NCBI RefSeq assembly: GCF_000787775.1
Contig: NZ_BBPM01000015.1
Coordinates: 1-43,590, forward strand
Source: Streptacidiphilus carbonis
GTDB taxonomy: Bacteria; Actinomycetota; Actinomycetes; Streptomycetales; Streptomycetaceae
Reading direction: 5' to 3'
Length of the DNA stretch: 43,590 nt
The notes under the pieces were generated by a model. The model did not search any database, was not told the DNA's origin, and saw only the letters and a program-made list of their open reading frames with translations. Numbering within the stretch: position 1 is the stretch's first letter; every line of letters starts with the position of its first letter. Made by a program: the position numbers and the translations under genes. Positions 1 through 22,882 of the stretch are shown in pieces.

Positions 1-1985
1 AGCGGACCAGCAGGGCCCGGTCCTCGGACCGCACCGGGGCGCCCGCCCCGACCATGGGGAACTGGACCGATGACGGGCTGTCAGCCCCCTGGTCGACCAC
101 CAGGGAGAGGGTGGTGTCGTCGGCGAGGAGCAGTTCGGCGCTCCAGTGGTCGACCTGCCGCGTCCTGGCGCTTGCGCGGATCTCGGCCTCCTCCTGGCGC
201 ACCCGCTCCAGGTCGGCGGGGTCGATCCGGGTGCTGAAGGGCACCTGTCCGTCGGCCTCGGCGCCCAGCTCGACCGGGAAGGACAGCTTGCGGTTGCTGC
301 CGTCCTCGGTGTGCCGCACCTGGAACCTGACCCCGTCCAGGCCCTCGCGCGCCCGGATCGAGCCGGCCAGCTCGATCAGGCCGTCGACCGGCCGGGCCGC
401 GGAGACCCGGGCCCTGACCGTCTCGATCCGCAGGCCGAGGTGCTGGTCGGAGATCTGCGGGATGAGCCGCACGTCCTGGTTCAGCCAGACCGGGGTGGGG
501 ACCTGGCCGGAGCCGGTCCTGCCCTCCTTGATCCGGGTCCGCCGCGGGCGGCCGGCGCCGAACTGCGCCAGCGTCACCCCCCAGTTGCCGTCCTTCCACT
601 CGCCGCGCTTCTTCAGGCGGTCCGGGTTGACCGTCACCGACCAGCCGGACCAGTCGGCGTGGTGGAACGGCAGGTTGCGCTCCCGGGCGGTCACGTCCGG
701 GCGGCGCACGGTGCGGGTGGGCAGCAGCAGGGTGCGCTTGCTCTTGCCGCCCTGGCGGAGCATCAGCGCGCGGACCGAGTCGAAGCGGTGCTCGGCGCCG
801 AGGTTCTTCTGGAAGGCGTGGCCCTCCAGCTTGAGCTCGCCGTCCTCCCAGGTGACCGTGTCCACGCTGGCGTGCAGGCCGACGGCGGCGACCAGGCTGG
901 ACACCGCCTCGTCCAGCGGTGGGCTGTCCTTGAGGGCGGGGTAGGCCGCCTTGGGCCGCAGCGTGCCCCGGGTCGGGATGGCCCGCGGGTACTCCTTCTC
1001 GAACTCCAGGATCGCCAGGATGTCGGCCATCCGGCGCTTGACGGTCAGCCAGAACTTGATCCGCAGCCCCTCGGGCAGGCGGTTCAGCACCGAGGGGTCG
1101 ATGTCGTCCAGGATCGGCCCGACATGGTCCAGGAAGAGTGTGCGGTACTCCTCGTCGGCGAACGGCAGCACCCGGTAGAAGATCTGCATCTCCTCGACCA
1201 GCACATTGTGGTCGTAGGAGCGCAGGTACTTGCCGTATTCCTTGCCGGGCTGGGACTTCAGGAAGTCCCTGACCATGCTGATCGAGGCCATCCGGTCGAT
1301 CAGGCCCTTGGGGTTGTCACGGTTCTGGGTGATCGACTTGGAGCCGACCTCGCGCATCCGCCACAGGTAGATCGGCTCCGACAGGGCGTCCACCTGCTTG
1401 GCCAGGTAGTGCAGCGGGATGCTCACCGGGGCGTCCTCGTACAGGATGCCGGGGTACTGCATCGCGTGCTCGTCCCAGAAGCTGCGCCGGTAGACCTTGT
1501 TCCAGGCGGTGCGGTCGGTGACCAGCGCCGGGAAGCTGCTGATGTGGGTGCCGATCCTGGTCTTCGCGAACGGCGCCTGGTGCACCCAGGACGGGTTGCT
1601 GCCGACGGCGCGGAAGCGGTGCACATTGCCGGCCACGAAGTCCGACCCGGACTGCTCCAGGGTCTCGATCATCAGCTGGTACGCCGTGGGCGGGACGATG
1701 TCGTCGCTGTCCACGAAGGCCAGGAACTCGCCGTCCTGGTGCATCTCGGCGGTGCCGGTGTTGCGGGCCGGGCCGAGGCCCTTGTTCTCCTGCTGGACCA
1801 GCCGGAACCGGGGGTCCCGCTGTGCGAACGCCTCGGCGATCACGGCGCTGGAGTCCGTGGAACCGTCGTCGACCATGACGACCTCGAAGGCGTTCGAAAG
1901 TCTGCGCGGCGAGGGATGCCAGGCACTCCTCGAGGTACAGCTCGACGTTGTAGATCGGGACGACCACGGAGAGACGGGGTGCCAT
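1..1985 (-). pseudogene. GT2 glycosyltransferase with beta-rich modules; frameshifted near the start and cut by the window edge
   Basis: Probable cell-wall polymer glycosyltransferase. The ATG at 1985 opens with MAPRLSVVVPIYNVELYLEE, a typical family 2 (GT-A) N-terminus. At about 1895 the frame breaks: one extra base in the TTCGAACGCC stretch separates the ...AAQTF segment from NAFEVVMVDDGS in the next frame. From there the frame stays open to base 1, about 630 more codons. Downstream I read the family motifs NKGLGPARNTG and FVDSDD (nucleotide-sugar and metal binding), then an alpha-helical stretch, then two copies of a beta-rich module (around VTWEDGELKLEGHAF and RPVDGLIELAGSI) that also occur in the paralogues at 9222-12758 and 4513-6557. 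By analogy a CDP-glycerol glycerophosphotransferase domain may follow beyond the left edge; that is inference. The indel may be a real inactivation or a sequence error. A start downstream of the break would lack the first strand of the fold. Confidence 0.75.
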
Positions 1986-2274
1986 GAGGTGGGGCGGACC
2001 TTTCTGGACTGACGGACACGGCGGACGTGCTCGACAGCGCGCACTGGTCCACTTGTACGACCCAGACTATCCGGCGCCCAGAGGGGTCGGCACCCTCCGT
2101 TCGGCTGGACGGCGGCAGCAGTAAAGGCCCCGGACATGTGCTGGACGGGGGCCCCGCGGCCGGACGCTAAGGTGTTCCCTCGGGTCGACCGCGTGGATGC
2201 CGCCTGCTCCACGCCCGCCACCTGGGTCTTTCGTGGGGGTTTCGGGGGTCGCTCCCGAAGAGATTGGAGCAGCC
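1986..2274. promoter_or_regulatory. Divergent intergenic region between two glycosyltransferase genes
   Basis: These 289 bases separate the oppositely transcribed genes starting at 1985 (minus) and 2275 (plus), so promoters for both must lie here. No reading frame in it looks coding. I see no clear -35/-10 pair. AT-rich patches near 2050-2070 and 2120-2130 are the likeliest places. Confidence 0.4.
2266..2269 (+). promoter_or_regulatory. Ribosome binding site fixing a GTG start
   Basis: GGAG, five bases before the GTG at 2275. This decides against a longer version starting at an ATG at 2197, which has no such site and would add 26 residues before the conserved PRFSIIVP strand. Confidence 0.7.
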
Positions 2275-4485
2275 GTGCCCCGGTTCAGCATCATCGTCCC
2301 CGCCTACCAGGTTCAGTCCTACCTGGGCGAGTGCCTCGACTCCGTGCTCGACCAGTCCTTCGCGGACTTCGAGCTGATCGCCGTGGACGACGCCTCGCCC
2401 GACGGCACCGGGGCGATCCTGGACCGGTACGCCGCCCGTGACCAGCGGGTCCGGGTGCTGCACCTGCCGGACAACGTGGGCCTGGGCCGGGCCAGGAACG
2501 CCGGGCTCGACGTGGCCACCGGCGACTATCTGCTCTTCCTGGACAGCGACGACATTCTCACCGAAGGCTCACTCGCTGCGGTGGCCGCCAGGCTCGCAGC
2601 CACCGGCGACCCCGAGGTCCTGGTCTACGACTACGCCCGGCTGTACTGGGACGACCGCACCGTCCGCAGCCGCGCCGGCGACGAGGGCGAGTTCCGCCCC
2701 GGCGGGGGCCGGCCCGACGTGTTCACCGCCGCCGAGCGCGAGAACGTCCTGGAACTGCTGATGGTCGTCTGGAACAAGGCCTACCGCAGGGACTTCGTCG
2801 AGGCGGCCGGCTTCAGGTTCCCGGCCGGGTACTACGAGGACACCCCCTGGACCTACCCGGTGCTGCTGTCCGCCCCCGGCATCGCCCTGCTGGACCGGGT
2901 GGTGGTGCACTACCGGCAGCGGAGGCAGGGCGGCAACATCCTGGCCACCGTCAGCCGCAAGCACTTCGACGTCTTCAGCCAGTACGACCTGGTGTTCGCC
3001 TTCGTCCAGGAGCGCCCGGAGCTGCACCGGTGGCTGCCGCTGCTGCACCGCCGGATGGTGGAGCACCTGCGCACGATCGCCGCCCACCCGGACCGGGTGC
3101 CGGCCGAGTCCCGCAAGGAGTTCCTGGCCCTGGCCGCCGACGCCGAGCGCCGGCACCGGCCGGAGGGCGCCCCCGAACTGGCGGTCACCGGTGACTGGAA
3201 GTCCGGGACGCTGGGCCGGATCGCCCGCGGCGCCCGGCGCGGCGTCAACGAGGCCACCCCCAGGGCCAAGAAGGCGGTGGCCCGGCAGCTGCTCAGCACC
3301 TATCAGAGCGTCCAGCGCAGACTGCCGCTGGACCCGCAGCTCGCCCTGTTCTCCTCCTACTGGTACCGGCTGCCCTCCTGCAACCCGGCGGCGATCCAGG
3401 CCAAGCTCAGCGAGCTGGCCCCGGAGATCCGACCGGTCTGGGTGGTGGAGGCAGGCCGCCGCAAGGACCTGCCCAAGGGCCTGGCCGCGGTCTCGCCCGG
3501 ATCCCGCGCCTACCGCGAGGCCGCCTCCCGGGCCACCTGGTCGGTCAGCAATGTCGACTTCCCGGTCAGCGTGCCCAAGCGCGAGGGCATGGTCTACCTG
3601 CAGACCCACCGCGGCACCCCGGTCAAGCAGATGGGTACGGCGCTGCGCGACTACCCGGCGGCCGGGTCGGCGCTGAGCTTCAACGCGATGCTGCGCCGGG
3701 TGGACTCCTGGGACTACAGCCTGAGCGCCAACCACTTCTCCACCCTGGTCTGGGAACGGGTCTACCCCTCCGACTTCCGGTCGCTGGAGTACGGCTACCC
3801 GCGCAACGACGTCTACTACTCGGCGGGCGCGGCCGAGGTGCTGGCCGCCCGCGAGGAACTGGGCATCAAGCCGGGGCAGACGGCGCTGCTGTACGCGCCG
3901 ACCACCCGCGAGTACCGCAGCAGCTACCGGCCCTCGCTGGACCCGGCCGCGCTGGTGCGCGACCTGGGCCCGGACCATGTGCTGCTGTACCGCTCGCCGG
4001 AGCTGAACGCCGGGGCCGGATACGTCGCGCCGCGCCGGGCCACCGGTGCCGGCGTCGTCGACGTCAGCACGCACCCCTCGGTGGAGCGGCTCGCGCTCGC
4101 CGCCGACGCGCTGATCACCGACTACTCCTCGCTGATGGCGGACTACGCCAACCTGGACCGGCCGATCGTGCTGTTCGCCGACGACTGGCAGGTCTACCGG
4201 GAGACCCGGGGCACCAACCTGGACCTCTTCTCCGGCCGTCCGGGGCAGTCGCCGGGTCCCACCGCCGCCGGCCAGGCCGAACTGACCGAGCTGCTGCGCT
4301 CCGGCGAGTGGCGGTCCGCCGCCGGCGACGGGCTGCGGGCCGCCTTCAGGGAGCGCTTCTGCGAGTTCGACGACGGCCGCGCCGCCGAGCGGGTGGTCCG
4401 CACCGTGTTCCTGGGAGAGCAGGTCCCGCTGCCGGTGCTGCCGTTGGCGGACCGCACCCCGGCGCCCAGGCCCGAAGGGCTCTGA
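2275..4485 (+). CDS. GT2 glycosyltransferase fused to a CDP-glycerol glycerophosphotransferase-like domain (catalytic histidines changed)
   Basis: A 736-residue two-domain protein, probably acting at the inner membrane face in teichoic-acid-like polymer synthesis. Residues 1 to about 230 are a family 2 glycosyltransferase: PRFSIIVPAYQ, VDDASPDGT and the metal-binding DSDD at residues 90-93. Residues from about 350 to the end match the CDP-glycerol:poly(glycerophosphate) glycerophosphotransferase family (TagB/TagF type), with EYGYPRNDV, LLYAPTTREY, ITDYSSLMADYANLDRP, YRETRG and RERFCEFDDGRAAERV. The family motif HGTP reads THRGTP here (444-449), so the histidine position is arginine. The second conserved histidine, in VRAH of the paralogue at 6737-8980, is serine (YRSP, S574). 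The transferase half may therefore use another mechanism or be non-catalytic. The start is the GTG with a well-placed GGAG. It converges on the disrupted paralogue ending at 4513, 27 bases away. Confidence 0.88.
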   Translation: MPRFSIIVPAYQVQSYLGECLDSVLDQSFADFELIAVDDASPDGTGAILDRYAARDQRVRVLHLPDNVGLGRARNAGLDVATGDYLLFLDSDDILTEGSLAAVAARLAATGDPEVLVYDYARLYWDDRTVRSRAGDEGEFRPGGGRPDVFTAAERENVLELLMVVWNKAYRRDFVEAAGFRFPAGYYEDTPWTYPVLLSAPGIALLDRVVVHYRQRRQGGNILATVSRKHFDVFSQYDLVFAFVQERPELHRWLPLLHRRMVEHLRTIAAHPDRVPAESRKEFLALAADAERRHRPEGAPELAVTGDWKSGTLGRIARGARRGVNEATPRAKKAVARQLLSTYQSVQRRLPLDPQLALFSSYWYRLPSCNPAAIQAKLSELAPEIRPVWVVEAGRRKDLPKGLAAVSPGSRAYREAASRATWSVSNVDFPVSVPKREGMVYLQTHRGTPVKQMGTALRDYPAAGSALSFNAMLRRVDSWDYSLSANHFSTLVWERVYPSDFRSLEYGYPRNDVYYSAGAAEVLAAREELGIKPGQTALLYAPTTREYRSSYRPSLDPAALVRDLGPDHVLLYRSPELNAGAGYVAPRRATGAGVVDVSTHPSVERLALAADALITDYSSLMADYANLDRPIVLFADDWQVYRETRGTNLDLFSGRPGQSPGPTAAGQAELTELLRSGEWRSAAGDGLRAAFRERFCEFDDGRAAERVVRTVFLGEQVPLPVLPLADRTPAPRPEGL

Positions 4486-4512
4486 GGGCCGGTCCGGGAG
4501 CCTCCGTCGGGA

Positions 4513-6557
<2,045 letters not shown>

Positions 6558-6736
6558 GGTGAAGCGGTGACCCTCCGGGAGTACGACAGGTGTGACGCGC
6601 GCTGGGGGGCGCCGACACGTCGCAGCCTCCGCGACGGGGGGCTCTAACCTAATTTTCAATGAACACACAACGTCCTCATGCTTTCGAGGACATGAATGCG
6701 TGGTGCAGGCCGGTGCTGCCGGTGCTGTCAGTGCCG
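6558..6736. promoter_or_regulatory. AT-richer spacer upstream of the disrupted transferase gene
   Basis: The stretch around 6645-6700 is clearly lower in GC than its surroundings and lies upstream of the minus-strand start at 6557, so it is the likely promoter region. The neighbouring minus-strand gene ends at 6737. I cannot place a convincing -35/-10 pair. Confidence 0.35.
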
Positions 6737-8980
6737 TCAGCGCACCGGGGCGGAGACCTGGAGCTGTGCCTGGCGGGGTGAGGGGGCGTGCGGCCGTTGC
6801 GCGAGCGGGAGCGGGGCCGGGAGCTCGCGCTGGTCCAGGAACAGCCTGCGGACCACCCGCTCGGCCGCCCGTCCGTCGTCGAGGGCGCAGAAGCGCTCCC
6901 GGAAGGCGGCGCGCAGCTTCGCCGAGTGCTCGCTTTCCCAGGCTCCGGAGCGGAACGCGTGCGCCAGGGTGTCCTCGTCCGCGGCCACCAGCCCGGGGGT
7001 CTCGCCGGGACGGCCGGACAGCAGGTCGAAGTAGACCCCGCGGGTCTCCCGGTACACCTCCCAGTCGGGGGCGTGCACGATGATCGGCCGGTCCAGGTTG
7101 GCGTAGTCGAAGAGGATCGAGGAGTAGTCGGTCACCAGGGCGTCGGAGGCCAGCATCAGCTCCTCCACGCTGGGGTGCTGCGACACGTCCCGGACCAGTC
7201 CGCGCCGCTGCAGGTCGCGCAGCCCGGCGTCCTCGCCGTAGAAGTAGTGGGCCCGGACCAGCAGGGTGCAGTCGTCGCCCAGGGCGCGGCAGAGCCGGGC
7301 GAGGTCCAACTGCAGCCGGAACTCCCGCTGGTGGTCCCGGTGCGTGGGCGCGTAGAGGATCGCCGTGGTGCCGGGGGCGATGCCCAGCCCCTCCCTGATC
7401 CGCAGCACGTCGGCACCGGTGGCGGTGGCCAGTACGTCGTTGCGCGGGTAGCCGGCCTCCAGGTTCTCGAAGGCGCCGGGGAAGACCCGGTCCCACACCT
7501 CGCTGGAGTGCCGGTTGGAGGACAGGCTCAGGTCCCACTGGGCGACCATGCCCATCAGCCGGTTCCAGTTGACCTTGGCGGAGCAGGCCGGGTGGTCCAG
7601 CTGGTCCAGGCCCATCTTCTTCAGCGGGGTGCCGTGATGGGTCATCAGGAACCGCTGCCCGGGGCGCTTGGGGAGGGCCATGCCGAGGCCCGAGTTGGTC
7701 ACCAGGTAGCCGGCCCGGGTGGCGTACCACCAGAACCTGGGGGAGCGCAGCAGCACGTGGTCGGTGCCCGCGGGCGCCGACTCGGCTCCCTTCGGCGTCA
7801 GCACCCACACGCCGCGGACGCCGGGGGCCAGTTCGCGTGCCTTGGCCTGGACCGCCCCGGGGTTGCTCCCGGTCGAGTCCCCCCAGTACGAGCAGTAGAG
7901 CGCCAGGTCGCGGCGGATCGGCAGCATTCCGCCGATCCGCCGGGCGGCCCCGACCAGATGTCCCTCGATCCGCCGGTGCAGCCGCTCGCGGCCCTGCAGC
8001 AGGCGCTTGCGGGCCTGGTCCAGCGCCTGCCCGGCCAGGAACAGCGAGCGCGAGCCGGTCAGCACACCCCGGGCGCGCAGGCCGCCGAGCCCCGGCAGCC
8101 CGCCCGCGGTCAGACCCCGTCGGCGCGTACAGCTCTCGGCCGCGGCCCGGAAGAAGGCGGCGGTCTCCGAGCGGGACGCGTCGCCGGGGCGGGACAGCTC
8201 GTCCAGGACGGTGCGGACCAGCCGCTCCAGCACCGACCGGGCCAGGTCCGGCTGGTCCTGGACCCGGGTGAGCAGCTCCTCGAAGCCGTCCAGCAGCGCC
8301 GGGTCGCACGCGCGGACGGCGGACGGCACCCGGGGGTCGCGCTGGATCCGGCGCACCAGGCACAGCTCGGAGCTGGTGGCCACGGTCCCGGCGTCCAGCA
8401 GCGAGCGGTAGGCGAAGACCAGTTCGGAGTCGGCGCCGGGCAGCGGCCCGGGGCCGTGCGGGGCGCAGAAGTCGCGGCGCAGCACCCGGTTGGACCGCAG
8501 CGCGGGCAGCCGCAGCAGCGTCGGCCGGGCCGCGGCCCCAGCGGTGCTGCCGCCGTCGGACTGGGCCGGCAGCACCGCGCCCCTGGCCGGCTGCGGACGG
8601 CGCTGCCAGTCGTCGGTCCGGTGCGCGAACACCAGCACCTGGGGGTCGCCGGCGGCGGCGAGCGCGCGGTCCAGCACTTCCAGCGCCCGCGGGGTGAGCG
8701 CGTCGTCGGCGGACAGCAGCAGCAGGTACTCGCCGGAGGCCCGGTCCGCGCCGAGGCGCAGCGCGGCGTCCTGGTCGCCGCTCCGGAGCGAGGACAGCAG
8801 CAGGACCCGCGGGTCCAGCCGGGTGAACTCGCCCGCGATCGCCGCGGTGTGGTCGGTCGATCCGGCGTCCACCACGATGAGTTGGACGTCGCCCCGACCC
8901 TGGGAGAGGACCGACTCCAGGCACTCCCTCAAGTGCCGCTGCGCGTTGTGGACCGGGACGATGATGCTGAAGCGGGGCAT
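6737..8980 (-). CDS. GT2 glycosyltransferase fused to a CDP-glycerol glycerophosphotransferase domain (both conserved histidines present)
   Basis: A 747-residue protein with the same two-domain layout as the gene at 2275-4485. The N-terminal GT2 domain (MPRFSIIVPVHNAQ) is degenerate: VVDAGSTD replaces VDDGSTD, and the metal-binding DSDD is SADD at residues 90-93. Residues from about 350 on form the TagB/TagF-like transferase: LYCSYWGDSTGSNP, LVTNSGLGMALPKRPGQ, THHGTPLKKMG (H449), EAGYPRNDV, LLVRAHYF (H578), VTDYSSILFDYANLDRP and RERFCALDDGRAAERV. It is the only copy seen here with both histidines conserved in the family, so it is the best candidate for active glycerophosphate (or other polyol phosphate) transfer from a CDP-activated donor. 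The start is the ATG at 8980; the upstream Shine-Dalgarno is weak. It is divergent from the gene at 9222. The real substrate is unknown. Confidence 0.88.
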   Translation of the reverse strand: MPRFSIIVPVHNAQRHLRECLESVLSQGRGDVQLIVVDAGSTDHTAAIAGEFTRLDPRVLLLSSLRSGDQDAALRLGADRASGEYLLLLSADDALTPRALEVLDRALAAAGDPQVLVFAHRTDDWQRRPQPARGAVLPAQSDGGSTAGAAARPTLLRLPALRSNRVLRRDFCAPHGPGPLPGADSELVFAYRSLLDAGTVATSSELCLVRRIQRDPRVPSAVRACDPALLDGFEELLTRVQDQPDLARSVLERLVRTVLDELSRPGDASRSETAAFFRAAAESCTRRRGLTAGGLPGLGGLRARGVLTGSRSLFLAGQALDQARKRLLQGRERLHRRIEGHLVGAARRIGGMLPIRRDLALYCSYWGDSTGSNPGAVQAKARELAPGVRGVWVLTPKGAESAPAGTDHVLLRSPRFWWYATRAGYLVTNSGLGMALPKRPGQRFLMTHHGTPLKKMGLDQLDHPACSAKVNWNRLMGMVAQWDLSLSSNRHSSEVWDRVFPGAFENLEAGYPRNDVLATATGADVLRIREGLGIAPGTTAILYAPTHRDHQREFRLQLDLARLCRALGDDCTLLVRAHYFYGEDAGLRDLQRRGLVRDVSQHPSVEELMLASDALVTDYSSILFDYANLDRPIIVHAPDWEVYRETRGVYFDLLSGRPGETPGLVAADEDTLAHAFRSGAWESEHSAKLRAAFRERFCALDDGRAAERVVRRLFLDQRELPAPLPLAQRPHAPSPRQAQLQVSAPVR

Positions 8981-9221
8981 GGGAATCCGTCGTGTCGAGT
9001 GCCTGGCGGGGGCGCGGCCGGCCCTGGGGTGGCGTCACGGCCTGCATCGACAGCGGAACGTATTGATCCGGTAACAGTCTGTCAAATCCGCTGTGCCGTC
9101 CAGCGGATGCGCCCTGGTTCACCTGAACGGGCGAGGGCGAGTGACCTTCTTCCGGCCGCCCTGGTTGGAGGTCCCATCGGGGACTCCCCGTCCGCGTCCC
9201 GCCCGGAGTCAGGTTGTTGCC
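8981..9221. promoter_or_regulatory. Divergent intergenic region between two glycosyltransferase genes
   Basis: A 241-base spacer between minus-strand (8980) and plus-strand (9222) starts. It contains an AT-richer patch at about 9058-9092 that could serve promoters in either direction. No coding frame or clear hairpin was seen. Confidence 0.35.
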
Positions 9222-12200
9222 ATGTCACCCCAACTCAGTGTCATCGTCCCCGTCTTCAATGTGCAGGACTACCTCGCGGACTGCCTGGACTCGATCGCGG
9301 CACAGACCATGGCCGACCTCGAAGCGGTGATGGTGGACGACGGCTCCACGGACGGAAGCACGGCGATCGCCGAGCGGTACGCGGCCGCGGACCCGCGGTT
9401 CCGGCTGGTGCGCCAGCAGAACGGGGGTCTCGGCAGCGCCCGCAACCTGGGGGTCCGCTCGGTCCACCCGGAAAGCAGGTACCTGGGCTTCGTCGACAGC
9501 GACGACGTCCTGCCCCGGGGCGCGTACCAGTACCTGTACGAGGCGCTGGAGGAGAGCGGCTCGGACCTCGCGACCGGCAACGTGTACCGGCTGCAGGCCG
9601 ACCGCCGGGTGCAGAACCACCAGCACGCGCATCTGGCCAGGACGGTGCTGGGCACCCATGTCAGCCGGGACCCGTGGCTGCTCACCGACCGGATCGCCTG
9701 CAACAAGCTGTTCCGCAGGGAGTTCTGGGAGCGGCACCGGCTGGCCTTCCCGGAGGGTGTGCTCTACGAGGACATCGCGCTGACCGTCCCCGCGCACTTC
9801 CTGGCAGAGGCCGTGGACGTGGTGCACCGGCACGTCTACTACTGGCGGATCAGAAGCGGCTCCATCACCCAGCGGGCCGCCGAGGCGCAGGGCGCCCGCG
9901 ACCGGATCGAGGCGGTCAACCGCACCAGCCGCTTCCTGGCCGAGCGCTCTCCAGCCCATCAGCGGGCCTTCGAGAAGCAGACCCTGTCCTATGACTTCCG
10001 CTTCCTGATGGACGCCTTTCCGAAGGCCGGCGAGGAGTACCGGGAGGCCGTCGTGGCCGGGGCCGCCGACTTCGCCGAACGGCTGGAGCCGGAGGCCTTC
10101 GCCGACCTCCCGGTCGACCTGCGGGCCAAGTGGGAGCTGATCCGCGGCCGCCGGACCGCGGAACTGCTCGACCTGATGCTGCTGGAGCAGCGCAGCCACC
10201 AGGGCTTCGAGGTCGCCGGCGGGGTCCGGCGCCGCGCGGTGTACCGCTCCGGCTCCGGCAAGCCGATCCCGCTCCCGGCCCGGGTCACCACCCTGCGCGG
10301 CGGTGAACTCCCGCTGACGGCCAAGTTGGAGGAGGTGGGCTGGTCGCCCGAGGGGTTGCTGGAACTGCACGGCTGCGCCTATGTCGAGAACCTCCCGGAC
10401 GGCTCCGCGCTCACCTCGTTCCGTACCGCCGTGCTCACCGGACCCGACCGGCGCCGCTCGCTGCTCCCGCTGCGGAGCCGTCCGTCGGTCGCCGCCGGGC
10501 GCGGCTCCTGGCAGGAACTGCACGACCACGGCGGCTCCGGCTTCCTGCTCACCGTCGACCCGGAGCGGTTCAAGCGCGACGGCCGTTGGCAGGTCGGCAG
10601 CTGGAGCCTGCGGATCGTGCTCGGGCGGGCCGGACTGCTGCGCAACGCGGGGCTGCGCGCCGCCGGGAGCAACGTCGACTTCACCCGGGTACGGCCGCTG
10701 GACCCGGACCGGCTGCTGCGGATCGGCTTCGACAAGGGGGTGGTGATCCTCAAGGTGGAGGAGGTGCAGGCCAGGATCGACGGCCACCGCCTGGTCGACG
10801 GATGCCTGGAGATCACCGGCCGGGTCCGCGAACGGCACCGCCCGGTACAGCTGACGGTCAATCAGAAGGGCTCCTCGGCACGGGTGGAGGTGCCGGTCCG
10901 CTGCGTCGCGGCGGAGGGCGGCTGGCGTCCCTTCCTGGCGGCCGTGCCGCTGGACACCGTCGGATCGGTCGCTCCCGCGGTCCAGGACGGCCCCCGTGAG
11001 CTGGCGCCCAGCTCGGTCGACGGCTGGTGGACCCGGCTGGTCACCGAGGGCGGGGCGCAGCTGGTGGTCAGCGCCGCGCCCGAACTCGCCTCCGGCAGCT
11101 ACCCGCTGCCGCCGGGGCCGGGCGGACCTCATCCGCGCCTGGGCGAGGAGCTGCAGCTGTTCGCGGGCACCGAGGGACAGTTGATGCTGGAGCGGACCCG
11201 GCGCCCGGCGGCCGAGCAGCTCGCCTGGACGCCCGGGGGACGGCTGGAGATCGCGGGAACGCTGCCCGGGGACGCCGGCCCGGTGGAACTGGTGCTGCGC
11301 CACAGCGGGCTGCACGAGGAGGCGCGCGTCCCGGTCACCCAGGCCGACGGCGGCTTCACCGCCTCCCTCGATCCGGCCGCCCACCCGGGGCCGCGCGGCG
11401 GACACCCGCTGCGTGAGGGGCACTGGTACGGCTTCCTGCGCCCGGTCGGCGCCGACAGCAGGGACGGCGAGCTGTCGCTGCGGCTCGCCACCTCCACCCT
11501 GGCCCGGCTTCCCCTGGACCGCCCGGGCGAGGGGCGCCGGTTCGCGGTGACGGCGTGCTACCGCGACATGTTCGTGCTCAGCTCCGGCGCCGCCCCCGGC
11601 TTCGAGCAGCAGAGCCCCTACCGGACCCGGCAGCTGGCCCGGGAGGCCTACCCGGCGGCCCGCCGGCTGCCGCTCCGCGACACCGTGCTGTACAGCAGCT
11701 TCGACGGACGCCAGTACGGGGACGCGCCGCGCGCCGTGCACGAGGAACTGCTCGGCCGCGACCGGGAGCTGCAGCACCTGTGGACGGTGGACGACGAGCA
11801 GGTGCCGCTGCCGCTGTCGGCCCGCGCCGTCGCGCTGGGCGGCGCGGAGTGGCACGAGGCGCTGGCCACCAGCCGCTATCTGGTCACCAACACCCAGCTG
11901 CCGCCCTGGTTCCGGCGGCGGGAGGGCCAGACCGTGGTCCAGTGCGGCACCGGGGTGCCGGTCAAGCGCACCGGACTGGCGCTGCGCGGCTCCGTCTACG
12001 CCGACCACAGCCGGCTGGCGGAGCTGCCCGAGCAGTCCCGGCAGTGGAGCCTGCTGTTGTCGCCGAACCGGTCCGGCACGGCGGCGCTGCGCCGGGCCTG
12101 GGACTACCGGGGCGAGATCCTCGGCGACTGCTCCCCGCGCACCGACCTGCTGCACGCCGAGGACCGGGAGAAGCTCGCCGAGGTGCTGCGGCGCCGGCTC

Positions 12201-12758
12201 GACCTGCCCGAGGGCCGCCGGACCGTGCTGTTCGCGCCGACCTTCCGGGACCACCGGGCGGTGGCCGGCGGCCCGCTGCGCTACGACTTCGCCCCCGGCC
12301 TGGACCTGGCGGCGCTGGCCGGCTCCCTCGGCGACGGGTACCGGCTGCTGGTGCGGCGCCACCCCGACACGGTCGCCTCGTTCCCGATCGGCGGAGCCGT
12401 CACCGACGTCACCGCCCACCCGGACGCCGTCGAACTGCTGCTGGTCGCCGACGTCCTGGTCACCGACTACTCCTCGCTGGCGGTCGACTTCTGCCGCACC
12501 GGGAAGCCGGTGCTGCTCTTCACCCCGGACCTGGACCAGTACCGGGACTCGGTCCGGGGCCTGGAGATCGACCTGCCCCGGCACGCCCCGGGCCCGCTGC
12601 TGCGGACCCAGGACGAGCTGGTGCAGGCCCTGCTGGGGCTGGACGCGGTGGCGGCCGACCACGCCGAGCGCTACGCGTCCTTCCGCGAGGCCCACTGCGG
12701 CGTACTGGACGCCGAGGGCGCCCGCCGCGCGGTCGACCGGATGCTGGCGCTCGGCTGA
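9222..12758 (+). CDS. Large GT2 / beta-module / CDP-glycerol glycerophosphotransferase-like protein (first histidine lost)
   Basis: An 1178-residue three-part protein. Residues 1 to about 250 are a canonical GT2 domain (MSPQLSVIVPVFNVQDY, VMVDDGSTDGS, FVDSDD with DSDD at 92-95, TDRIACNKLFRREFW). From about residue 365 to 770 come three beta-rich modules with the pattern W-x-x-x-G-x-L-x-L-x-G (VGWSPEGLLELHGCAYVEN; VDGCLEITGRV; LAWTPGGRLEIAGTL). From about 810 to the end is the transferase domain: VLYSSFDGRQYGDAPRAVHE, VLFAPTFRDHRA, LLVRRHPD, VTDYSSLAVDF. The motif normally reading TWHGTPLK is CGTGVPVK at about residue 907, so the first conserved histidine is missing although the second (RRHPD) is kept. 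The ATG at 9222 places the first beta strand at residue 4; an upstream in-frame start at 9093 would add unrelated sequence. It may glycosylate and bind polymer without transferring polyol phosphate; that is inference. Confidence 0.87.
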   Translation: MSPQLSVIVPVFNVQDYLADCLDSIAAQTMADLEAVMVDDGSTDGSTAIAERYAAADPRFRLVRQQNGGLGSARNLGVRSVHPESRYLGFVDSDDVLPRGAYQYLYEALEESGSDLATGNVYRLQADRRVQNHQHAHLARTVLGTHVSRDPWLLTDRIACNKLFRREFWERHRLAFPEGVLYEDIALTVPAHFLAEAVDVVHRHVYYWRIRSGSITQRAAEAQGARDRIEAVNRTSRFLAERSPAHQRAFEKQTLSYDFRFLMDAFPKAGEEYREAVVAGAADFAERLEPEAFADLPVDLRAKWELIRGRRTAELLDLMLLEQRSHQGFEVAGGVRRRAVYRSGSGKPIPLPARVTTLRGGELPLTAKLEEVGWSPEGLLELHGCAYVENLPDGSALTSFRTAVLTGPDRRRSLLPLRSRPSVAAGRGSWQELHDHGGSGFLLTVDPERFKRDGRWQVGSWSLRIVLGRAGLLRNAGLRAAGSNVDFTRVRPLDPDRLLRIGFDKGVVILKVEEVQARIDGHRLVDGCLEITGRVRERHRPVQLTVNQKGSSARVEVPVRCVAAEGGWRPFLAAVPLDTVGSVAPAVQDGPRELAPSSVDGWWTRLVTEGGAQLVVSAAPELASGSYPLPPGPGGPHPRLGEELQLFAGTEGQLMLERTRRPAAEQLAWTPGGRLEIAGTLPGDAGPVELVLRHSGLHEEARVPVTQADGGFTASLDPAAHPGPRGGHPLREGHWYGFLRPVGADSRDGELSLRLATSTLARLPLDRPGEGRRFAVTACYRDMFVLSSGAAPGFEQQSPYRTRQLAREAYPAARRLPLRDTVLYSSFDGRQYGDAPRAVHEELLGRDRELQHLWTVDDEQVPLPLSARAVALGGAEWHEALATSRYLVTNTQLPPWFRRREGQTVVQCGTGVPVKRTGLALRGSVYADHSRLAELPEQSRQWSLLLSPNRSGTAALRRAWDYRGEILGDCSPRTDLLHAEDREKLAEVLRRRLDLPEGRRTVLFAPTFRDHRAVAGGPLRYDFAPGLDLAALAGSLGDGYRLLVRRHPDTVASFPIGGAVTDVTAHPDAVELLLVADVLVTDYSSLAVDFCRTGKPVLLFTPDLDQYRDSVRGLEIDLPRHAPGPLLRTQDELVQALLGLDAVAADHAERYASFREAHCGVLDAEGARRAVDRMLALG

Positions 12759-12816: not shown

Positions 12817-14061
12817 CTACCGGCTGCCCACCGGCTGCGAGGCGTTCGCGATGGCGTCGTCGAACGCCGGTGCCGGAGCGGTCACCGGCTGCTTCAGCAC
12901 TGACCGGAAGCCCAGCAGCACCGCGACGGCCAGGGTTCCCCACGCAGTCGCCGACCATCGGAGTTCGAGCAGCGTCCAGTGGGTGGCGCGGGCGTAGTCC
13001 CAAAGGCCGCCGCCGCTCCAACGGGAGTACAGCTCGGTCAGGAACAGCCCCGCAACCAGGTTGTAGGCCAGCCCGCCGTACAGGTCGGCGATGGCGGTAC
13101 CGGCGGCGGCCCAGGCGAGGTACTGCGCCGCGCTGGCGGTGCTGAGCAGCAGCATCACGGCCAGCGACAGACCGGCGGCGGCACCGGCTTCCTGCGGCTC
13201 GCGCCAGGCGACCCAGAGGCCCGCGACCGCGGCGAGGAGCACCACGGCGAAGCGGCCCGGTCCCACCAGCAGCGCGAGCCAGTGCGGCGGAAGTTCCAGC
13301 AGGGCCACGAACTTCGGTACGCCCCAAGGGCGGTAGAGCACTCCTGCGTAGTCGAGGACATCGGCCCGCACCTGCGCCGGATAGCGCAGCAGCGGGCCGG
13401 CCCACAGGGCGGTGAGCGCTGCGGCCAGACCGACGCCGAAGCGGTATCCCCCGCGTCCGCACAACCGGAACGCCGCCAGCAGCAGGGCGGGCGCTGCGAC
13501 GACCGGAACGAGTTTGACGCTGAGCGCGAGTCCCAGCGCGACGCCGCCCCACAGCGGCGACCGGCGCCGGGCCAGCAACCAGGCCGAGAGCAGGGTGAGT
13601 CCCACGAATACCGGGTCGGTATTACCGTGGAACCCGGAGACCGCCACCAGGACCGGGCTGAGCGCCACCACGATGGCGCACCAGCGGGCGCGGCGGATCC
13701 CCATCCGGTCCCGGGTCAGGTCGAGAACCAGCAGACAGGTCATCAGATCGGCGCCGCAGGCGGGGAGCCGGACCAGCAGGGGCATGGGAGCGCCGACGGC
13801 CTTCAGGTGCGCCATCATGTCGAGCAGGATGCCGGTGAGCGGCCCGTGGTTGTACACCATGGGCCCGGCATGGGCCGCGCCGTAGACGGAGACCGGACCC
13901 ACTGCGGCGATGGTGTGTGCGAATTCCTCGAAAGTCCGCACGTCGCCGGTCCCGTGCGTGGAGGCCGCGACGGCAATCTTCGCCGCTGTTGCGATGAGGC
14001 CCGTCAGGAGAACCTGGAGGCGGGCGTTCCGCAGTGTGATCGCCGGTCCTGTGATTGCCAT
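12817..14061 (-). CDS. Polytopic GT-C-type glycosyltransferase
   Basis: A 414-residue integral membrane protein with roughly ten hydrophobic segments. After the first one comes an acidic loop (THGTGDVRTFEEF), the usual site of catalytic acidic residues in GT-C enzymes that use polyprenyl-phosphate sugars. Next are PMVYNHGPLTGILLD and VSGFHGNTDPVFVGL, both matched in the tandem gene at 14190-15587 (VYNHPPLTGWVL; VSAYHGNTDSL). The two are clearly paralogues, resembling the GT87/DUF2029 or ALG6-like superfamily. It likely adds a sugar to a lipid-linked or wall-polymer precursor outside the membrane; substrate unknown. The ATG at 14061 follows an AT-rich promoter-like stretch. It converges on the large transferase gene ending at 12758 and fits the surrounding cell-surface glycan theme. 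The C-terminal 25 residues are charged and probably cytoplasmic. Confidence 0.75.
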   Translation of the reverse strand: MAITGPAITLRNARLQVLLTGLIATAAKIAVAASTHGTGDVRTFEEFAHTIAAVGPVSVYGAAHAGPMVYNHGPLTGILLDMMAHLKAVGAPMPLLVRLPACGADLMTCLLVLDLTRDRMGIRRARWCAIVVALSPVLVAVSGFHGNTDPVFVGLTLLSAWLLARRRSPLWGGVALGLALSVKLVPVVAAPALLLAAFRLCGRGGYRFGVGLAAALTALWAGPLLRYPAQVRADVLDYAGVLYRPWGVPKFVALLELPPHWLALLVGPGRFAVVLLAAVAGLWVAWREPQEAGAAAGLSLAVMLLLSTASAAQYLAWAAAGTAIADLYGGLAYNLVAGLFLTELYSRWSGGGLWDYARATHWTLLELRWSATAWGTLAVAVLLGFRSVLKQPVTAPAPAFDDAIANASQPVGSR

Positions 14062-14189: not shown

Positions 14190-15587
14190 TCAGGCGGTCG
14201 CCTGCTCCCTGCCGGGCGGGGTGGATCCTGCGGCTTCGGCCACGGACTCCGTGTCGGGCCGGGGCTGCGGCAGGGCCGCGCTCCCGGCCTGCCGGACTTG
14301 CCAGGCGCCGTAGCCGATCCCGAGGCCGAGCACGGTCCAGGTGAGCAGCCCGAGGAACAGTTCGCCGTCGCTCCACCTGGTGACATGCACCTGGTGCCAG
14401 GGGAAGCCTCCGCTCCAGCGGGTGTAGATCAGCACCAGCAGCGAACCGCCGAGGACGTTGTACCAGAGCCCCGGCCACAGGCCCACGACCAGCATCGACG
14501 GGGCCGCCCAGGCCAGGTACTGCACCCCGCTCGCGGTCGACAGGAAGAGCAGTGCGGACACGGTGAGCCCGGTGATCGCGGGCAGTTCCTGCGGCCGCTT
14601 CCAGGCCAGCACCGCGCCGAAGGCCATCACCAGCGCGACCACCGGTAGATGGCCGCTGCCGTAGAGGAAGTCCAGCACCGGCCTGGGCACCCCGAGCCAC
14701 CGCCCGGCCTGCAGCATTCCCCACTGGCGGTCGCCGCCGCCCTGGTACTCCAGCACATGATTCAGCAGCCCGCGCGGCGCCAGCACCAGGGCCGGGCCCC
14801 ACAGCACTGCCAGGGTCGCCAGCAGACCGGCCAGGAAGCGCCGCGCGGTGCCCGGGCCGATCCGGAACGCGCCCACCAGCAGCAGTGGGAGCGCGACCAC
14901 CGGGGGCAGCTTGACGCTCACCGCCAGCGCCGCCGCCACCCCGGCCCAGACCGGCGACCGCAGGTCGACCAGGAGCAGCACCGACGCCAGCGCGAACATC
15001 ACGCAGAGCGAGTCGGTGTTGCCGTGGTACGCGGAGACGGTGACCAGCACCGGGCTGGCGGAGACGGCGACCGAGCACCCCAGTGCGGTCAGCGGCCGCT
15101 GCCGACGCCGCATCAGTTCGAAGACCAGCAGCGCCGAGCAGAGGTCGCCCAGGCAGGGCGGGATCCGGATCAGCGTGGTGAAGGCGATGCCGTGCCTGGC
15201 CAGATGCCCCAGCGCCAGCAGCACCCAGCCGGTGAGCGGCGGATGGTTGTAGACCGGGAGATGCCTCGGCAACCGGGCCTCGTACACCCGGTAGGGCCCC
15301 AGTCGGAGGATCGCGCTGCTGAACCCGTGGAAGAACTGGGCATCCGCGGAGCCGACCGTATGGGCGGCGATGTCCAGTTTCAGGAGCAGCGCGACCAGCG
15401 CGGCGGCGGCGGCGAGAAATCGCGCCGTCCCGGCCGGCCGGGACCTGAGGAAAAGCAGTCTCATGAAATCGGAACGACCCGGACGCGCCCCGGTGACGGC
15501 CGCGCACAGCGGATCATCAGGACGAGTGAAACCGACTCCGAGCGCATGCCGAGAGATATGAGCTAGGCCGTGTAATTGCGACTTCAT
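14190..15587 (-). CDS. Polytopic GT-C-type glycosyltransferase (paralogue of the next gene)
   Basis: A 465-residue multispanning protein, or 424 residues if the ATG at 15464 (MRLLFLRSRPAG) is the true start. I favour the shorter form on protein grounds, because the extra 41 residues are hydrophilic and unlike the paralogue, but neither ATG has a good ribosome site. It shares VYNHPPLTGWVLLALGHL, YHGNTDSLCVMFALASVLLL, VSVKLPPVVALPLLL, VQYLAWAAPSMLVVGL and a late YTRWSGG with the gene at 12817-14061. The order of conserved segments, with an acidic residue in the first loop (LDIAAHTVGSADAQFFHGF), supports a GT-C lipid-linked-sugar-dependent transferase. The proline-rich tail is likely cytoplasmic. 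The donor and acceptor cannot be deduced; the neighbourhood suggests a wall polymer or glycoprotein. Confidence 0.75.
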   Translation of the reverse strand: MKSQLHGLAHISRHALGVGFTRPDDPLCAAVTGARPGRSDFMRLLFLRSRPAGTARFLAAAAALVALLLKLDIAAHTVGSADAQFFHGFSSAILRLGPYRVYEARLPRHLPVYNHPPLTGWVLLALGHLARHGIAFTTLIRIPPCLGDLCSALLVFELMRRRQRPLTALGCSVAVSASPVLVTVSAYHGNTDSLCVMFALASVLLLVDLRSPVWAGVAAALAVSVKLPPVVALPLLLVGAFRIGPGTARRFLAGLLATLAVLWGPALVLAPRGLLNHVLEYQGGGDRQWGMLQAGRWLGVPRPVLDFLYGSGHLPVVALVMAFGAVLAWKRPQELPAITGLTVSALLFLSTASGVQYLAWAAPSMLVVGLWPGLWYNVLGGSLLVLIYTRWSGGFPWHQVHVTRWSDGELFLGLLTWTVLGLGIGYGAWQVRQAGSAALPQPRPDTESVAEAAGSTPPGREQATA

Positions 15588-21298: not shown

Positions 21299-22558
21299 CT
21301 ACACCCGCGGCAGCGCCTGCCGCCGCCGTTTGGCGGCATACCGTCGCCGCCGCATCAGCACCAGCCCGCCGCCCGCCGCCACGGCGACCGCCACCAGCCC
21401 TGCCCCGGACGCCCCGGCCCACCCCACCGCTCCGAGCCCGGACGAACCCGAGGCGCCGACCGACACCCGCGCGGCCCTGGACGGCGCCGACACCGAGTCT
21501 CCGGCGGTCCCGGCCTTCGGCGCCGTGGAGGGTACAGCCGCGGCACCGTCCAGGCTGCCGACCGGGGTGACCCTGCCGTCGGCTGCGAAGCCCCAGTCGA
21601 GCAGTTCCCTGGCCTCGGCGTAGACCGCGTTCAGCTCACGGTCCTGCGGATTCATCACCGTCGCCATGATGGTCCGGTCACCCCGCCGGGCCGCCACCAC
21701 CAGCGTGTTCCCGGCGTTGGTGGTGTAGCCGTTCTTGACGCCGATCAGGCCGTCGTAGCGGGGGACACCGTCGATGCCCATCAGCATCCGGTCGGTGTTG
21801 TCGATCTCGAACGGCTTGCCCTTGGTGTTCGGCCCACCGGGGAACTCGGCCTTCCAGGTCCCGGCGTAGCGCGCGAAGTCCGCGTTCTTCAAGCCGTCCC
21901 GCGCGAACAGGCTGAGGTCGTACGCCGAGGACACCTGCCCCGGCATGTCGTAGCCGTCGGGCGAGACCACATGGGTGTCGTTCGCGCCCAGCCTGGCGGC
22001 CTGGGCCTGCATCTGCGCAACGGTCGCGGCCACCCCGCCGTTCATCGAGGCCAGTACGTGCACCGCGTCGTTGCCGGAGCGCAGGAAGACGCCGAGCCAC
22101 AGGTCGGACACCTTGTACGTCTGCCCGGGCAGCACACCGACCAGGCTGCTGCCCTCGCCCATCCCGGCCAGGTCCGCGTCGGTGACCTTGTGGACGGCCC
22201 GGGTCGGGATCTTCGGCAGCACGGTGTCGGCGAACAGCGTCTTCAGCGTGCTCGCCGGCGGCAGCGCCCAGTGCGGGTTCTGCGCCGCCAGCACCTGGCC
22301 GGTCGCGGTGTCGGAGACGATCCAGGACAGCGCGCTCAGCTTGGCCGGCAGCGCGGGCGCCCCCGGGCCCGGCTGCACCTGTACCCCTGGCAGCCCCAAC
22401 CGCTCACCGCCGACCGTGGACATCCGGGCCGGCGGTTTCGGTGCCGCGGTGGCGCTCGCCCTGGGCGAGGGCGTCGCCGCGGCGGGAACGGCGCCAACCA
22501 GCCCTACGGCGAGCGCGGTGGAGCACACGGCTGCTGCGGTACGGAGATCGAAGTGCAC
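21299..22558 (-). CDS. Membrane-anchored D-alanyl-D-alanine carboxypeptidase (S11 family)
   Basis: A 419-residue exported penicillin-binding-type enzyme that trims the terminal D-Ala from peptidoglycan stem peptides. It has a signal sequence (residues 1-28), a proline/alanine-rich spacer to about 60, then the S11 catalytic domain to about 330. The nucleophile motif STLK is at 103-106 (PPASTLKT), the second motif SGN at 161-163, and the third motif reads KNG at 275-277 (IGVKNGYTTNAG) instead of the usual KTG. A spacer, one C-terminal membrane helix (GLVAVAVAAGGGLVLM) and a basic tail RRRRYAAKRRR follow, so the enzyme sits outside the cell anchored by its C-terminus. The start is the GTG at 22558, directly before a good signal peptide; a longer version to 22801 would overlap the divergent gene. 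In S. coelicolor a carboxypeptidase gene is likewise adjacent to SCO4848 and near wall-polymer genes (from memory). Confidence 0.88.
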   Translation of the reverse strand: MHFDLRTAAAVCSTALAVGLVGAVPAAATPSPRASATAAPKPPARMSTVGGERLGLPGVQVQPGPGAPALPAKLSALSWIVSDTATGQVLAAQNPHWALPPASTLKTLFADTVLPKIPTRAVHKVTDADLAGMGEGSSLVGVLPGQTYKVSDLWLGVFLRSGNDAVHVLASMNGGVAATVAQMQAQAARLGANDTHVVSPDGYDMPGQVSSAYDLSLFARDGLKNADFARYAGTWKAEFPGGPNTKGKPFEIDNTDRMLMGIDGVPRYDGLIGVKNGYTTNAGNTLVVAARRGDRTIMATVMNPQDRELNAVYAEARELLDWGFAADGRVTPVGSLDGAAAVPSTAPKAGTAGDSVSAPSRAARVSVGASGSSGLGAVGWAGASGAGLVAVAVAAGGGLVLMRRRRYAAKRRRQALPRV

Positions 22559-22642
22559 CGGTCGACCGTACCCAACCGATCCCTCCGTCCCAACCACCCC
22601 CCCGAAAAAAACACACCAATGCCAGGCCGGGATACTTGCCCC

Positions 22643-22882
22643 ATGAGACTGAGCCGCCGCGCCTCCTGGTTCCTGACCGCCTTCGGCGTCTGGAGTCTTT
22701 GGATCTGGGCAACCTTCTTCAAGAACCTCTGGGCCGACGGCGAGGGCCTCGCCTTCACCGGCGGCGACCACTCCCGCCCCACCGCCTACTTCTGGATCCA
22801 CGCCACCCTCGCCCTGGCCTCCCTGGTGCTCGGCCTGGTCGTCGGCTCAGTGGGCGTCAGATCCCTTCGCCACAAGTCCTGA
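22643..22882 (+). CDS. SCO4848-family small membrane protein
   Basis: A 79-residue conserved streptomycete membrane protein with two transmembrane segments: WFLTAFGVWSLWIWATFF and AYFWIHATLALASLVLGLVVG. Between them is an acidic/aromatic loop with DGEGLAFTGGDHSRP. Function unknown. It diverges from the carboxypeptidase gene with 84 bases between the starts, an arrangement I recall as conserved in Streptomyces. A GATACT hexamer at 22631-22636, about six bases before the ATG, could be a -10 box giving a leaderless or nearly leaderless message; no Shine-Dalgarno is visible. It converges on sdhB with the hairpin at 22894-22928 between. Confidence 0.85.
   Translation: MRLSRRASWFLTAFGVWSLWIWATFFKNLWADGEGLAFTGGDHSRPTAYFWIHATLALASLVLGLVVGSVGVRSLRHKS

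What the first reader, a model, noticed from the sequence alone, without database searches (positions are those of the whole stretch)
1..12758. Five modular wall-polymer transferase paralogues with unequal loss of catalytic residues
The copies shuffle three parts: GT2 domain, beta-rich module and TagB/F-like domain. At the HGTP motif they read THRGTP (2275-4485), TWHGTP (4513-6557), THHGTP (6737-8980) and CGTGVP (9222-12758). At the second histidine they read YRSP, deleted, VRAH and VRRH. Family work on TagF shows two conserved histidines are needed. Only one copy has both, and that copy has a weakened GT2 acidic motif (SADD for DSDD). This suggests division of labour, with inactive partners or acceptors of a different chemistry.
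Basis: partly seen in the sequence, partly recalled or inferred. Interest (0 to 1): 0.7.

Follow-up and report, generated by a model that had tools for sequence, protein, structure and literature searches.

The report
Wall-polymer enzymes splitting their two jobs
A row of related cell-wall enzymes in a soil actinomycete, each built from a sugar-adding half and a phosphate-linking half, has copies in which one half or the other has lost its usual active-site residues, and the same kind of loss recurs in related bacteria, so it looks like specialisation mixed with ordinary gene decay.

Summary
The motif readings are correct. The window is the first 43.6 kb of a Streptacidiphilus contig. Of five copies, copy 1 is cut by the contig end and frameshifted; copy 3 is broken by an out-of-frame deletion (intact in S. 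jeojiense). At TagF H444/H584 copy 2 has R/P, copy 5 T/H, copy 4 H/H with a degenerate GT2. Copy 5's TGVP and copy 4's GT2 changes are in 3 of 3 species; copy 2 lost its residues stepwise, and its GT2 and TagF are under relaxed constraint. Of 276 TagF domains sampled from Streptomycetaceae, 58 lack H444 (11 also H584); 55 of these 58 keep an intact GT2. Of 57 domains with GT2 altered or absent in frame, 54 keep both histidines. Best reading: bifunctional enzymes splitting into glycosyltransferases and phosphotransferases that act together; published single-domain mutants do so in trans. Against: the exclusion is borderline after allowing for kinship; three genomes hold a lone His-less gene; a GT2-less neighbour is not clearly commoner beside His-less copies (16 of 23) than beside intact ones (9 of 19); loss of H444 alone need not abolish activity.

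The parts
1..1985 (-). copy 1: long type, GT2 plus start of the beta-rich module; TagF domain lies beyond the contig end; one extra base at ~1890 breaks the frame
   Evidence: whole orthologue L028:10301-14098(-) has TWHGTP and IRPH
2275..4485 (+). copy 2: short type GT2-TagF (open from an ATG at 2197); GT2 motifs intact (LDSDD 2539-2553, YYEDTPW 2830-2850), TagF H444->R (3604-3621), H584->P (3988-3999)
4513..6557 (-). copy 3: beta module plus TagF without GT2, broken by an out-of-frame deletion at ~4839; frame with TWHGTP ends at 4818
   Evidence: open in S. jeojiense L030:2587-5100(+)
6737..8980 (-). copy 4: short type GT2-TagF; both TagF histidines kept, GT2 degenerate (VDAGSTD 8852-8872, LSADD 8702-8716, YED motif lost 8417-8440)
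9222..12758 (+). copy 5: long type GT2-linker-beta-TagF; GT2 intact (VDSDD 9492-9506, LYED 9762-9782); TagF H444->T in CGTGVP (11943-11960), H584 kept (12351-12362)
1986..2274 (.). stretch between the divergent starts of copies 1 and 2
8981..9221 (.). stretch between the divergent starts of copies 4 and 5
12817..14061 (-). GT87-type membrane glycosyltransferase next to the array
21299..22801 (-). S11 D-Ala-D-Ala carboxypeptidase, followed by sdhB (22938-23732) and sdhA (23732-25486): like the genes beside the tandem pair in L061

Best explanation
The array descends from bifunctional wall-polymer enzymes: a GT2 domain that adds a sugar, in the long type followed by a TarS/RmlT-like linker and beta module, fused to a TagF domain that adds an alditol- or sugar-phosphate. 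After duplication the copies specialised. Copy 5 (and, in other genera, long copies with Q, L, V, I, R or T at H444) is now mainly a glycosyltransferase; its TagF domain has lost the catalytic base but is kept by selection, most likely to hold the polymer chain, the membrane or a partner. Copy 4 (and GT2-less relatives such as copy 3 of S. jeojiense) is now mainly a phosphotransferase. Together they would make or decorate one polymer in trans. The window strain's array is also partly decaying: copy 3 is broken, copy 1 is frameshifted or mis-sequenced, copy 2 is under relaxed constraint. Shown: motifs, their conservation, constraint, co-location, fold class. Inferred: activities, complex formation, the polymer.
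For: 276 distinct TagF domains in 152 loci: GT2 intact/TagF His intact 164; GT2 intact/His lost 55; GT2 altered/His intact 22; no GT2 in frame/His intact 32; GT2 altered/His lost 2; no GT2 in frame/His lost 1 (Fisher, intact GT2 against all others, p = 0.0005, not corrected for kinship). At least 15 tree changes for the TagF state and 17 for the GT2 state. 38 of 48 loci with a His-less copy also hold an intact-TagF gene in the stretch fetched. In genus g14, 16 loci have a GT2(+)TagF(-) gene next to a GT2-less TagF(+) gene; L061, one of them, lies beside the same S11-sdhB-sdhA genes as the window. Constraint (NG86 w): copy 5 GT2 0.14-0.17 and TagF 0.22-0.29, copy 4 TagF 0.21-0.30 and GT2 0.29-0.37, gene X GT2 0.72 against TagF 0.19; eight g14 loci, TagF(-) median 0.31, partner TagF(+) 0.38. 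The copy 5 model matches TagF, RmlT and TarS. Single-domain mutants of TagF-like polymerases restore full polymer synthesis in trans (PMC5974469, section 13 read).
Against: Without the GT2-less genes the association is not significant (GT2 intact against altered, p = 0.077). Independent pairs: not significant; simulations on the tree give P 0.11 to 0.04 (loss only) and 0.11 to 0.006 or less (reversible), by rate. In g14 the GT2-less neighbour stands beside 16 of 23 His-less long copies but also beside 9 of 19 with both histidines, so it is not tied to the loss. Three of 107 listed genomes (G038, G133, G146) hold one PF04464 match only and it is His-less, with TagF w 0.45-0.52. In g9 the GT2 of His-less copies is no more constrained (0.46) than that of intact ones (0.40). 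Cps7A is active with Tyr at H444 (PMC11666461). Copy 2 looks like decay. No biochemistry, expression or polymer data.
Confidence: 0.45

Rival explanations
1. TagF domains without H444 but with H584 are still active, with another base or a different acceptor, like the priming transferase Cps7A; they start or cap chains while the H/H copies elongate.
For: 47 of 58 His-less domains keep H584; they keep R582 (57 of 58), the TDYSS Asp (58 of 58) and the last Asp (57 of 58). Copy 5 keeps all of these and both TDYSS serines. Cps7A has Tyr at the H444 place and is active (PMC11666461, passages). Lone His-less genes persist in three genomes. Short His-less copies such as copy 2 often keep the His just before the H444 place.
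Against: The second Ser of TDYSS, kept in 208 of 218 His-intact domains, is kept in only 24 of 58 His-less ones. Alanine mutants at either histidine of Cps1B and Cps7D made no polymer (PMC5974469, section 13).
Confidence: 0.27
2. Simple decay: duplicated copies are losing function at random and the altered motifs are steps on the way to pseudogenes.
For: Copy 3 is deleted out of frame and copy 1 frameshifted. Copy 2 lost its residues stepwise, with w 0.36-0.51 in GT2 and TagF within the trio against 0.13-0.45 among four His-intact orthologues. Frame-broken TagF genes also occur in L103, L104 and L151.
Against: Copy 5 and eight g14 His-less genes are open, conserved between species and constrained in GT2 and TagF. 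Genes with both domains altered are rare (2 of 276).
Confidence: 0.22
3. Part of the damage (copy 1 insertion, copy 3 deletion) is sequencing or assembly error in a repeat-rich draft contig end.
For: Copy 1 and contig C105 are 94-100% identical over most of the GT2 part and both contigs stop at the same residue, so reads may be misplaced. A single extra C is a common kind of error (general knowledge).
Against: The genome search found no second copy-3-like TagF (7 PF04464 matches in all), so mis-assembly there is less likely. The changes in copies 2, 4 and 5 are not affected.
Confidence: 0.3

Closest known systems
TagF-like capsule polymerases with GT-A/TagF architecture (Cps1B, Cps12B, CslB; PMC5974469)
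   Same: N-terminal GT-A domain fused to a TagF-like domain; the same catalytic histidines and DXD motif in intact copies; engineered one-domain mutants work in trans
   Different: Here the one-domain changes are natural, in neighbouring paralogues of actinomycetes; the long type has a beta module between the domains; product unknown
TagF of Staphylococcus epidermidis (3l7i; mutants 3l7j and 3l7m)
   Same: Best sequence match in the PDB for copies 2, 4 and 5 and best Foldseek match for copy 5
   Different: Copies 2 and 5 lack H444 (copy 2 also H584); copy 4 has both
TarS and RmlT wall teichoic acid glycosyltransferases
   Same: Foldseek matches of the copy 5 model; sequence match in the GT2 part (residues 47-281 to RmlT, 48-255 to TarS); TarS_linker hit below its cut-off
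   Different: They carry no TagF domain (known architecture, recalled)
Cps7A, a priming PF04464 glycerol-phosphate transferase (PMC11666461)
   Same: No histidine at the H444 place, histidine at the H584 place, as in copy 5
   Different: Cps7A has Tyr, copy 5 has Thr in a changed CGTGVP motif; activity of copy 5 untested
SCO2589/SCO2590 of Streptomyces coelicolor
   Same: Consecutively numbered genes both annotated as CDP-glycerol glycerophosphotransferases (PMC6629963, one passage) and named among wall teichoic acid glycosyltransferases (PMC3937824, passage)
   Different: Their sequences were not seen here; whether they show the split motifs is unknown

Membership tests
PF04464 (CDP-glycerol glycerophosphotransferase / TagF family) | profile match over the curated cut-off | tested here: met
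   copies 2, 4, 5 over most of the profile (328.9, 374.8, 255.1 bits; cut-off 22.1); copy 3 in two fragments; copy 1's TagF is not in the assembly, its G010 orthologue has it
catalytically standard TagF-like transferase | His at the H444 and H584 places | tested here: not met
   met by copy 4 only among readable copies; copy 2 R/P, copy 5 T/H
catalytically standard TagF-like transferase | other donor-site residues: R582, TDYSS, final Asp | tested here: met
   present in copies 2, 4 and 5
GT-A/TagF-like bifunctional polymerase (PMC5974469 type) | active-site motifs intact in both domains of one protein | tested here: not met
   no readable copy in this window has both; the G010 orthologue of copy 1 does
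GT-A/TagF-like bifunctional polymerase (PMC5974469 type) | polymerises a phosphate-linked glycopolymer in vitro | not testable with these tools
   no assay
TarS/RmlT-like wall teichoic acid glycosyltransferase | GT2 domain, linker and tandem beta domains in this order | tested here: inconclusive
   Foldseek E about 8e-18 (RmlT) and 9e-14 (TarS) over 600-700 columns, but TM-scores only about 0.13/0.23, no aligned ranges printed, and model mean pLDDT 62
split polymerase pair | one partner GT2 intact/TagF altered, neighbour TagF intact/GT2 altered or absent | tested here: met
   copies 5 and 4 in 3 of 3 species; 16 g14 loci
split polymerase pair | physical or functional complementation | not testable with these tools
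   needs biochemistry

The most novel reading that the evidence does not exclude
In Streptomycetaceae, bifunctional GT2-TagF wall-polymer polymerases have repeatedly separated into complementary one-activity partners encoded side by side: TarS/RmlT-like glycosyltransferases that keep a retired TagF domain as a polymer-binding platform, and phosphotransferases that keep or discard a dead GT2. Polymer structure would then be set by which partners are combined, a natural version of the trans-complementation that I know only from engineered mutants.
Probability: 0.32. Interest if true: 0.65.

Novelty: new variant of a known kind. Interest (0 to 1): 0.48.

Why it matters
In Streptomyces a teichuronic-acid-like polymer on wall teichoic acid is a receptor for lectin-guided umbrella toxins and varies between species (PMC13274773, passages); to my knowledge few actinomycete enzymes of this kind have been assayed. 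If TagF domains without the catalytic histidine are kept as binding platforms, naming genes by family alone ('CDP-glycerol glycerophosphotransferase') would be misleading for many of them (58 of the 276 domains sampled here; not a random sample). The pairs also allow a direct test of trans action between two halves of a polymerase.

Tried and rejected
Rejected: (a) that the changes are only sequencing errors: copy 5's TGVP is in 3 of 3 orthologues found and copy 4's GT2 changes in 3 of 3. (b) That another histidine stands at the H444 or H584 place in copies 2 or 5: the alignments to solved TagF are ungapped there and show none. Copy 2 does keep the His one residue before the H444 place, as intact short copies do (THHGTP); no atomic superposition could be made, so it is not excluded as a stand-in. 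(c) Free shuffling of modules: BLAST shows two stable architectures. (d) Strict mutual exclusion of the two losses: not significant by independent pairs, borderline by simulation. (e) That a His-less copy always needs a partner: three genomes contradict it. (f) That the GT2-less neighbour comes with the loss: it also stands beside 9 of 19 intact g14 long copies.

Led nowhere: the genome-contig scan with copy 5 returned one relative only. Pfam gave no family for the beta module of copies 3 and 5. The AlphaFold models were of moderate quality (mean pLDDT 62 for copy 5, 65 for copy 2), so no residue-level claim rests on them; the copy 2 model was not searched against structures. YN00 rates mostly failed, so only NG86 values are used; in these high-GC genes NG86 values are rough and only comparisons between domains are meant. 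Papers on SCO2997 and PdtA (PMC3194905, PMC5007769) are not held. Listings of searches for such split pairs or this array showed none by title or opening of abstract; the library lacks most subscription papers.

Rows dropped or limits: the 276 domains come from stretches that I chose (12, 40), not from all matches in the 107 genomes listed. 12 partial domains were set aside and one repeated domain sequence was counted once. 'No GT2 in frame' includes cut or frame-broken genes (L135 is cut; L035 and L033 are frame-broken; L104 and L047:11592-12824 may be). The GT2 classes rest on the DXD and ED columns of an automatic alignment. Confidence was lowered a little (0.50 to 0.45; novel case 0.35 to 0.32) after the recount.
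Full report
What was checked. The window is bases 1-43590 of contig C125 (160,059 bases) of an 8.46 Mb draft genome. The one named relative found is Streptacidiphilus jeojiense NRRL B-24555; handle G004 has the same contig (number 41, 62,865 bases), and the window's genome is in the same genus group, so the genus is taken to be Streptacidiphilus. Pfam finds GT2 in copies 1, 2, 4, 5 and PF04464 in copies 2, 3, 4, 5. By HMMER alignment the altered residues fall on the two histidines changed in solved TagF mutants, without gaps: copy 2 has R and P; copy 5 has T at the first place and keeps H at the second.

Copy 3 (4513-6557) is not an enzyme with one histidine missing: the frame stops at 4818 and the last part of TagF lies in another frame after a deletion of about 0.45 kb near 4839. 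In S. jeojiense the gene is open (837 aa) with both histidines and lies in the opposite orientation relative to copy 2; in the G010 stretches the copy 3 protein matched only copies 1 and 5. Copy 1 is cut by the contig end and, compared with a near-identical stretch on contig C105, has one extra C near base 1890. Contigs C125 and C105 both stop at residue 740 of this protein. Within the genome the two genes are 94-100% identical over most of the GT2 part but 57-75% in parts of the beta module; in G010 the corresponding genes are 96-100% identical over nearly all of TagF. That looks like gene conversion between two loci and would explain the assembly break. In G010 copy 1 is whole with both histidines, and the array continues with a further short copy, gene X (both histidines, GT2 degenerate), whose orthologue in the window's genome is at the end of contig C122.

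Two architectures. BLAST among the copies shows a short type (GT2, about 130-160 residues, TagF; copies 2, 4, X and C113) and a long type (GT2, about 600 residues of linker and beta module, TagF; copies 1, 5). Copy 3 is a long type without GT2, nearest (57%) among those compared to a long gene of another genus. In five other Streptacidiphilus genomes (G001, G003, G009, G011, G012) a long and a short gene stand divergently side by side; in G002 the order differs (L179). Copies 4 and 5 are a further such pair in the trio of window strain, S. jeojiense and G010; copy 1 of S. jeojiense is missing at its contig end.

Are the altered motifs inherited? Copy 5: CGTGVP in 3 of 3; copy 4: S at the first DXD aspartate, A in VDDGS and no YED in 3 of 3. 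Copy 2: H/H in the five orthologues from other Streptacidiphilus examined, C/H in G010 and S. jeojiense, R/P in the window strain. Pairwise NG86 w: copy 5 GT2 0.14-0.17, beta module 0.36-0.39, TagF 0.22-0.29; copy 4 GT2 0.29-0.37, TagF 0.21-0.30; gene X GT2 0.72, TagF 0.19; copy 2 GT2 0.36-0.45 and TagF 0.37-0.51 within the trio, against 0.13-0.26 and 0.24-0.45 among four of its His-intact orthologues. So copy 5's changed TagF is held like an active domain, the degenerate GT2 of copies 4 and X are freer than the intact GT2 of copy 5, and copy 2 is relaxed in both domains.

The family picture. PF04464 was listed for 107 genomes of the family and stretches around many, not all, of the matches were taken. 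Of 276 distinct full TagF domains, 58 lack H444 and 11 of these also lack H584; the other 218 have both. At H444 the 58 have Q 33, R 7, T 5, C, L, G, V 2 each, and Y, I, E, A, D once each. By GT2 state: intact with both histidines 164; intact with His lost 55; altered with both histidines 22; no GT2 in frame with both histidines 32; altered with His lost 2 (L155, L175); no GT2 in frame with His lost 1 (L104). Fisher's test gives p = 0.0005 for intact GT2 against all others but p = 0.077 for intact against altered alone, and related genes are not independent. On a FastTree tree without the motif columns there are at least 15 changes of the TagF state and 17 of the GT2 state; independent pairs are not significant, and simulation of the GT2 trait on that tree gives P from 0.11 to 0.006 or less according to model and rate. 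I take the exclusion as suggestive only.

Where the altered copies sit. 48 loci hold a His-less copy; in 38 an intact-TagF gene lies in the same fetched stretch. Of the other 10, L029 belongs to the same array as L028, and in L103 and L104 a neighbouring TagF gene is frame-broken. In genus g14, 16 of 23 His-less long copies have a GT2-less, His-intact neighbour, but so do 9 of 19 long copies with both histidines, so the neighbour is not tied to the loss. The L061 pair lies beside the same kinds of genes (S11 carboxypeptidase, sdhB, sdhA) as the window array. In eight g14 loci the His-less TagF is as conserved as its partner's (mean identity 89.9 against 88.9%; median w 0.31 against 0.38, GT2 0.11). 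In seven g9 loci a His-intact gene stands between two His-less ones; there the GT2 of one His-less group is no more constrained (0.46) than that of the intact genes (0.40), and its TagF is similar (0.36 against 0.32). G038, G133 and G146 have one PF04464 match each and it is His-less; its GT2 w is 0.16-0.18 and TagF 0.45-0.52. Of the 10 single-match genomes are His-intact and 3 His-less.

How it may work. The AlphaFold model of copy 5 (mean pLDDT 62) matches TagF, and also RmlT and TarS, glycosyltransferases of wall teichoic acid; aligned ranges are not printed, but the sequence match to RmlT and TarS is in the GT2 part, so I infer that the GT2-linker-beta part is the match. A free-standing GT2 with a TarS linker lies near gene X on contig C122. 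In the capsule polymerase Cps1B a GT-A mutant and TagF histidine mutants make no polymer alone but do so at wild-type level when mixed (PMC5974469, section 13 read). By their residues copies 4 and 5 resemble those mutants. The likeliest mechanism is that copy 5 adds the sugar and copy 4 the phosphate-linked unit, on the same chain. The rival that copy 5's TagF is active by another route is real: Cps7A works with Tyr at the H444 place (PMC11666461, passages) and copy 5 keeps H584, both TDYSS serines and the arginines. In many other His-less domains the second TDYSS serine is gone (34 of 58), which speaks for lost phosphotransfer there.

Known and new. TagF-type enzymes, GT2-TagF fusions, the need for two histidines and trans action of engineered halves are known. 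S. coelicolor SCO2589 and SCO2590 carry annotations of this family (PMC6629963 and PMC3937824, passages), but their sequences were not seen here. I found no account of natural loss of one or the other activity in neighbouring paralogues in the listings. Schertzer 2005 and Lovering 2010 were seen only as references in other papers.

Verdict. Real, partly misread (one copy broken, one cut off, one decaying), and part of a wider, repeated pattern that deserves a biochemical test: a new variant of a known kind.

Noticed in passing
window 1-1985 and L032 (contig C105) 1-1990; L028:10301-14098 and L033:4527-8230: Two distant long genes in one genome are nearly identical in parts of GT2 (and, in G010, in TagF) but differ in the beta module: looks like gene conversion around a diverging middle.
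   Followed up: partly
window ~1890: One extra C breaks the frame of copy 1 compared with C105; could be an error in the draft.
   Followed up: partly
L031:4175-5842: Free-standing GT2 with a TarS linker near gene X, beside a class I (Trp/Tyr type) tRNA synthetase and a lactate/malate dehydrogenase gene.
   Followed up: no
L033:4527-8230: The G010 paralogue of copy 1 on contig C2 is split between two frames at the start of TagF.
   Followed up: no
window 12817-14061 and 14190-15587: Two neighbouring proteins, one a clear and one a weak (below cut-off) match to glycosyltransferase family GT87.
   Followed up: no
L047:3279-6461 and L055:3804-6806: A third architecture in genus g9: degenerate GT2, about 350-residue spacer, TagF with TWHGSAYK.
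   Followed up: no
G046:C23, G148:C1084, G087:C1:6330834, G091:C2, G135:C11, G073:C7, G035:C22: Weak PF04464 matches (E about 1e-30 to 1e-34) inside open frames of 1470-1959 codons: perhaps a remote subfamily.
   Followed up: no
L031:87-2393 and L028:7906-10215: Gene X reads ADYSS or GDYSS where most relatives read TDYSS, although both histidines are kept.
   Followed up: no
PDB 3l7m: The entry title says H548A, but the letter change in the alignment is at residue 584.
   Followed up: partly
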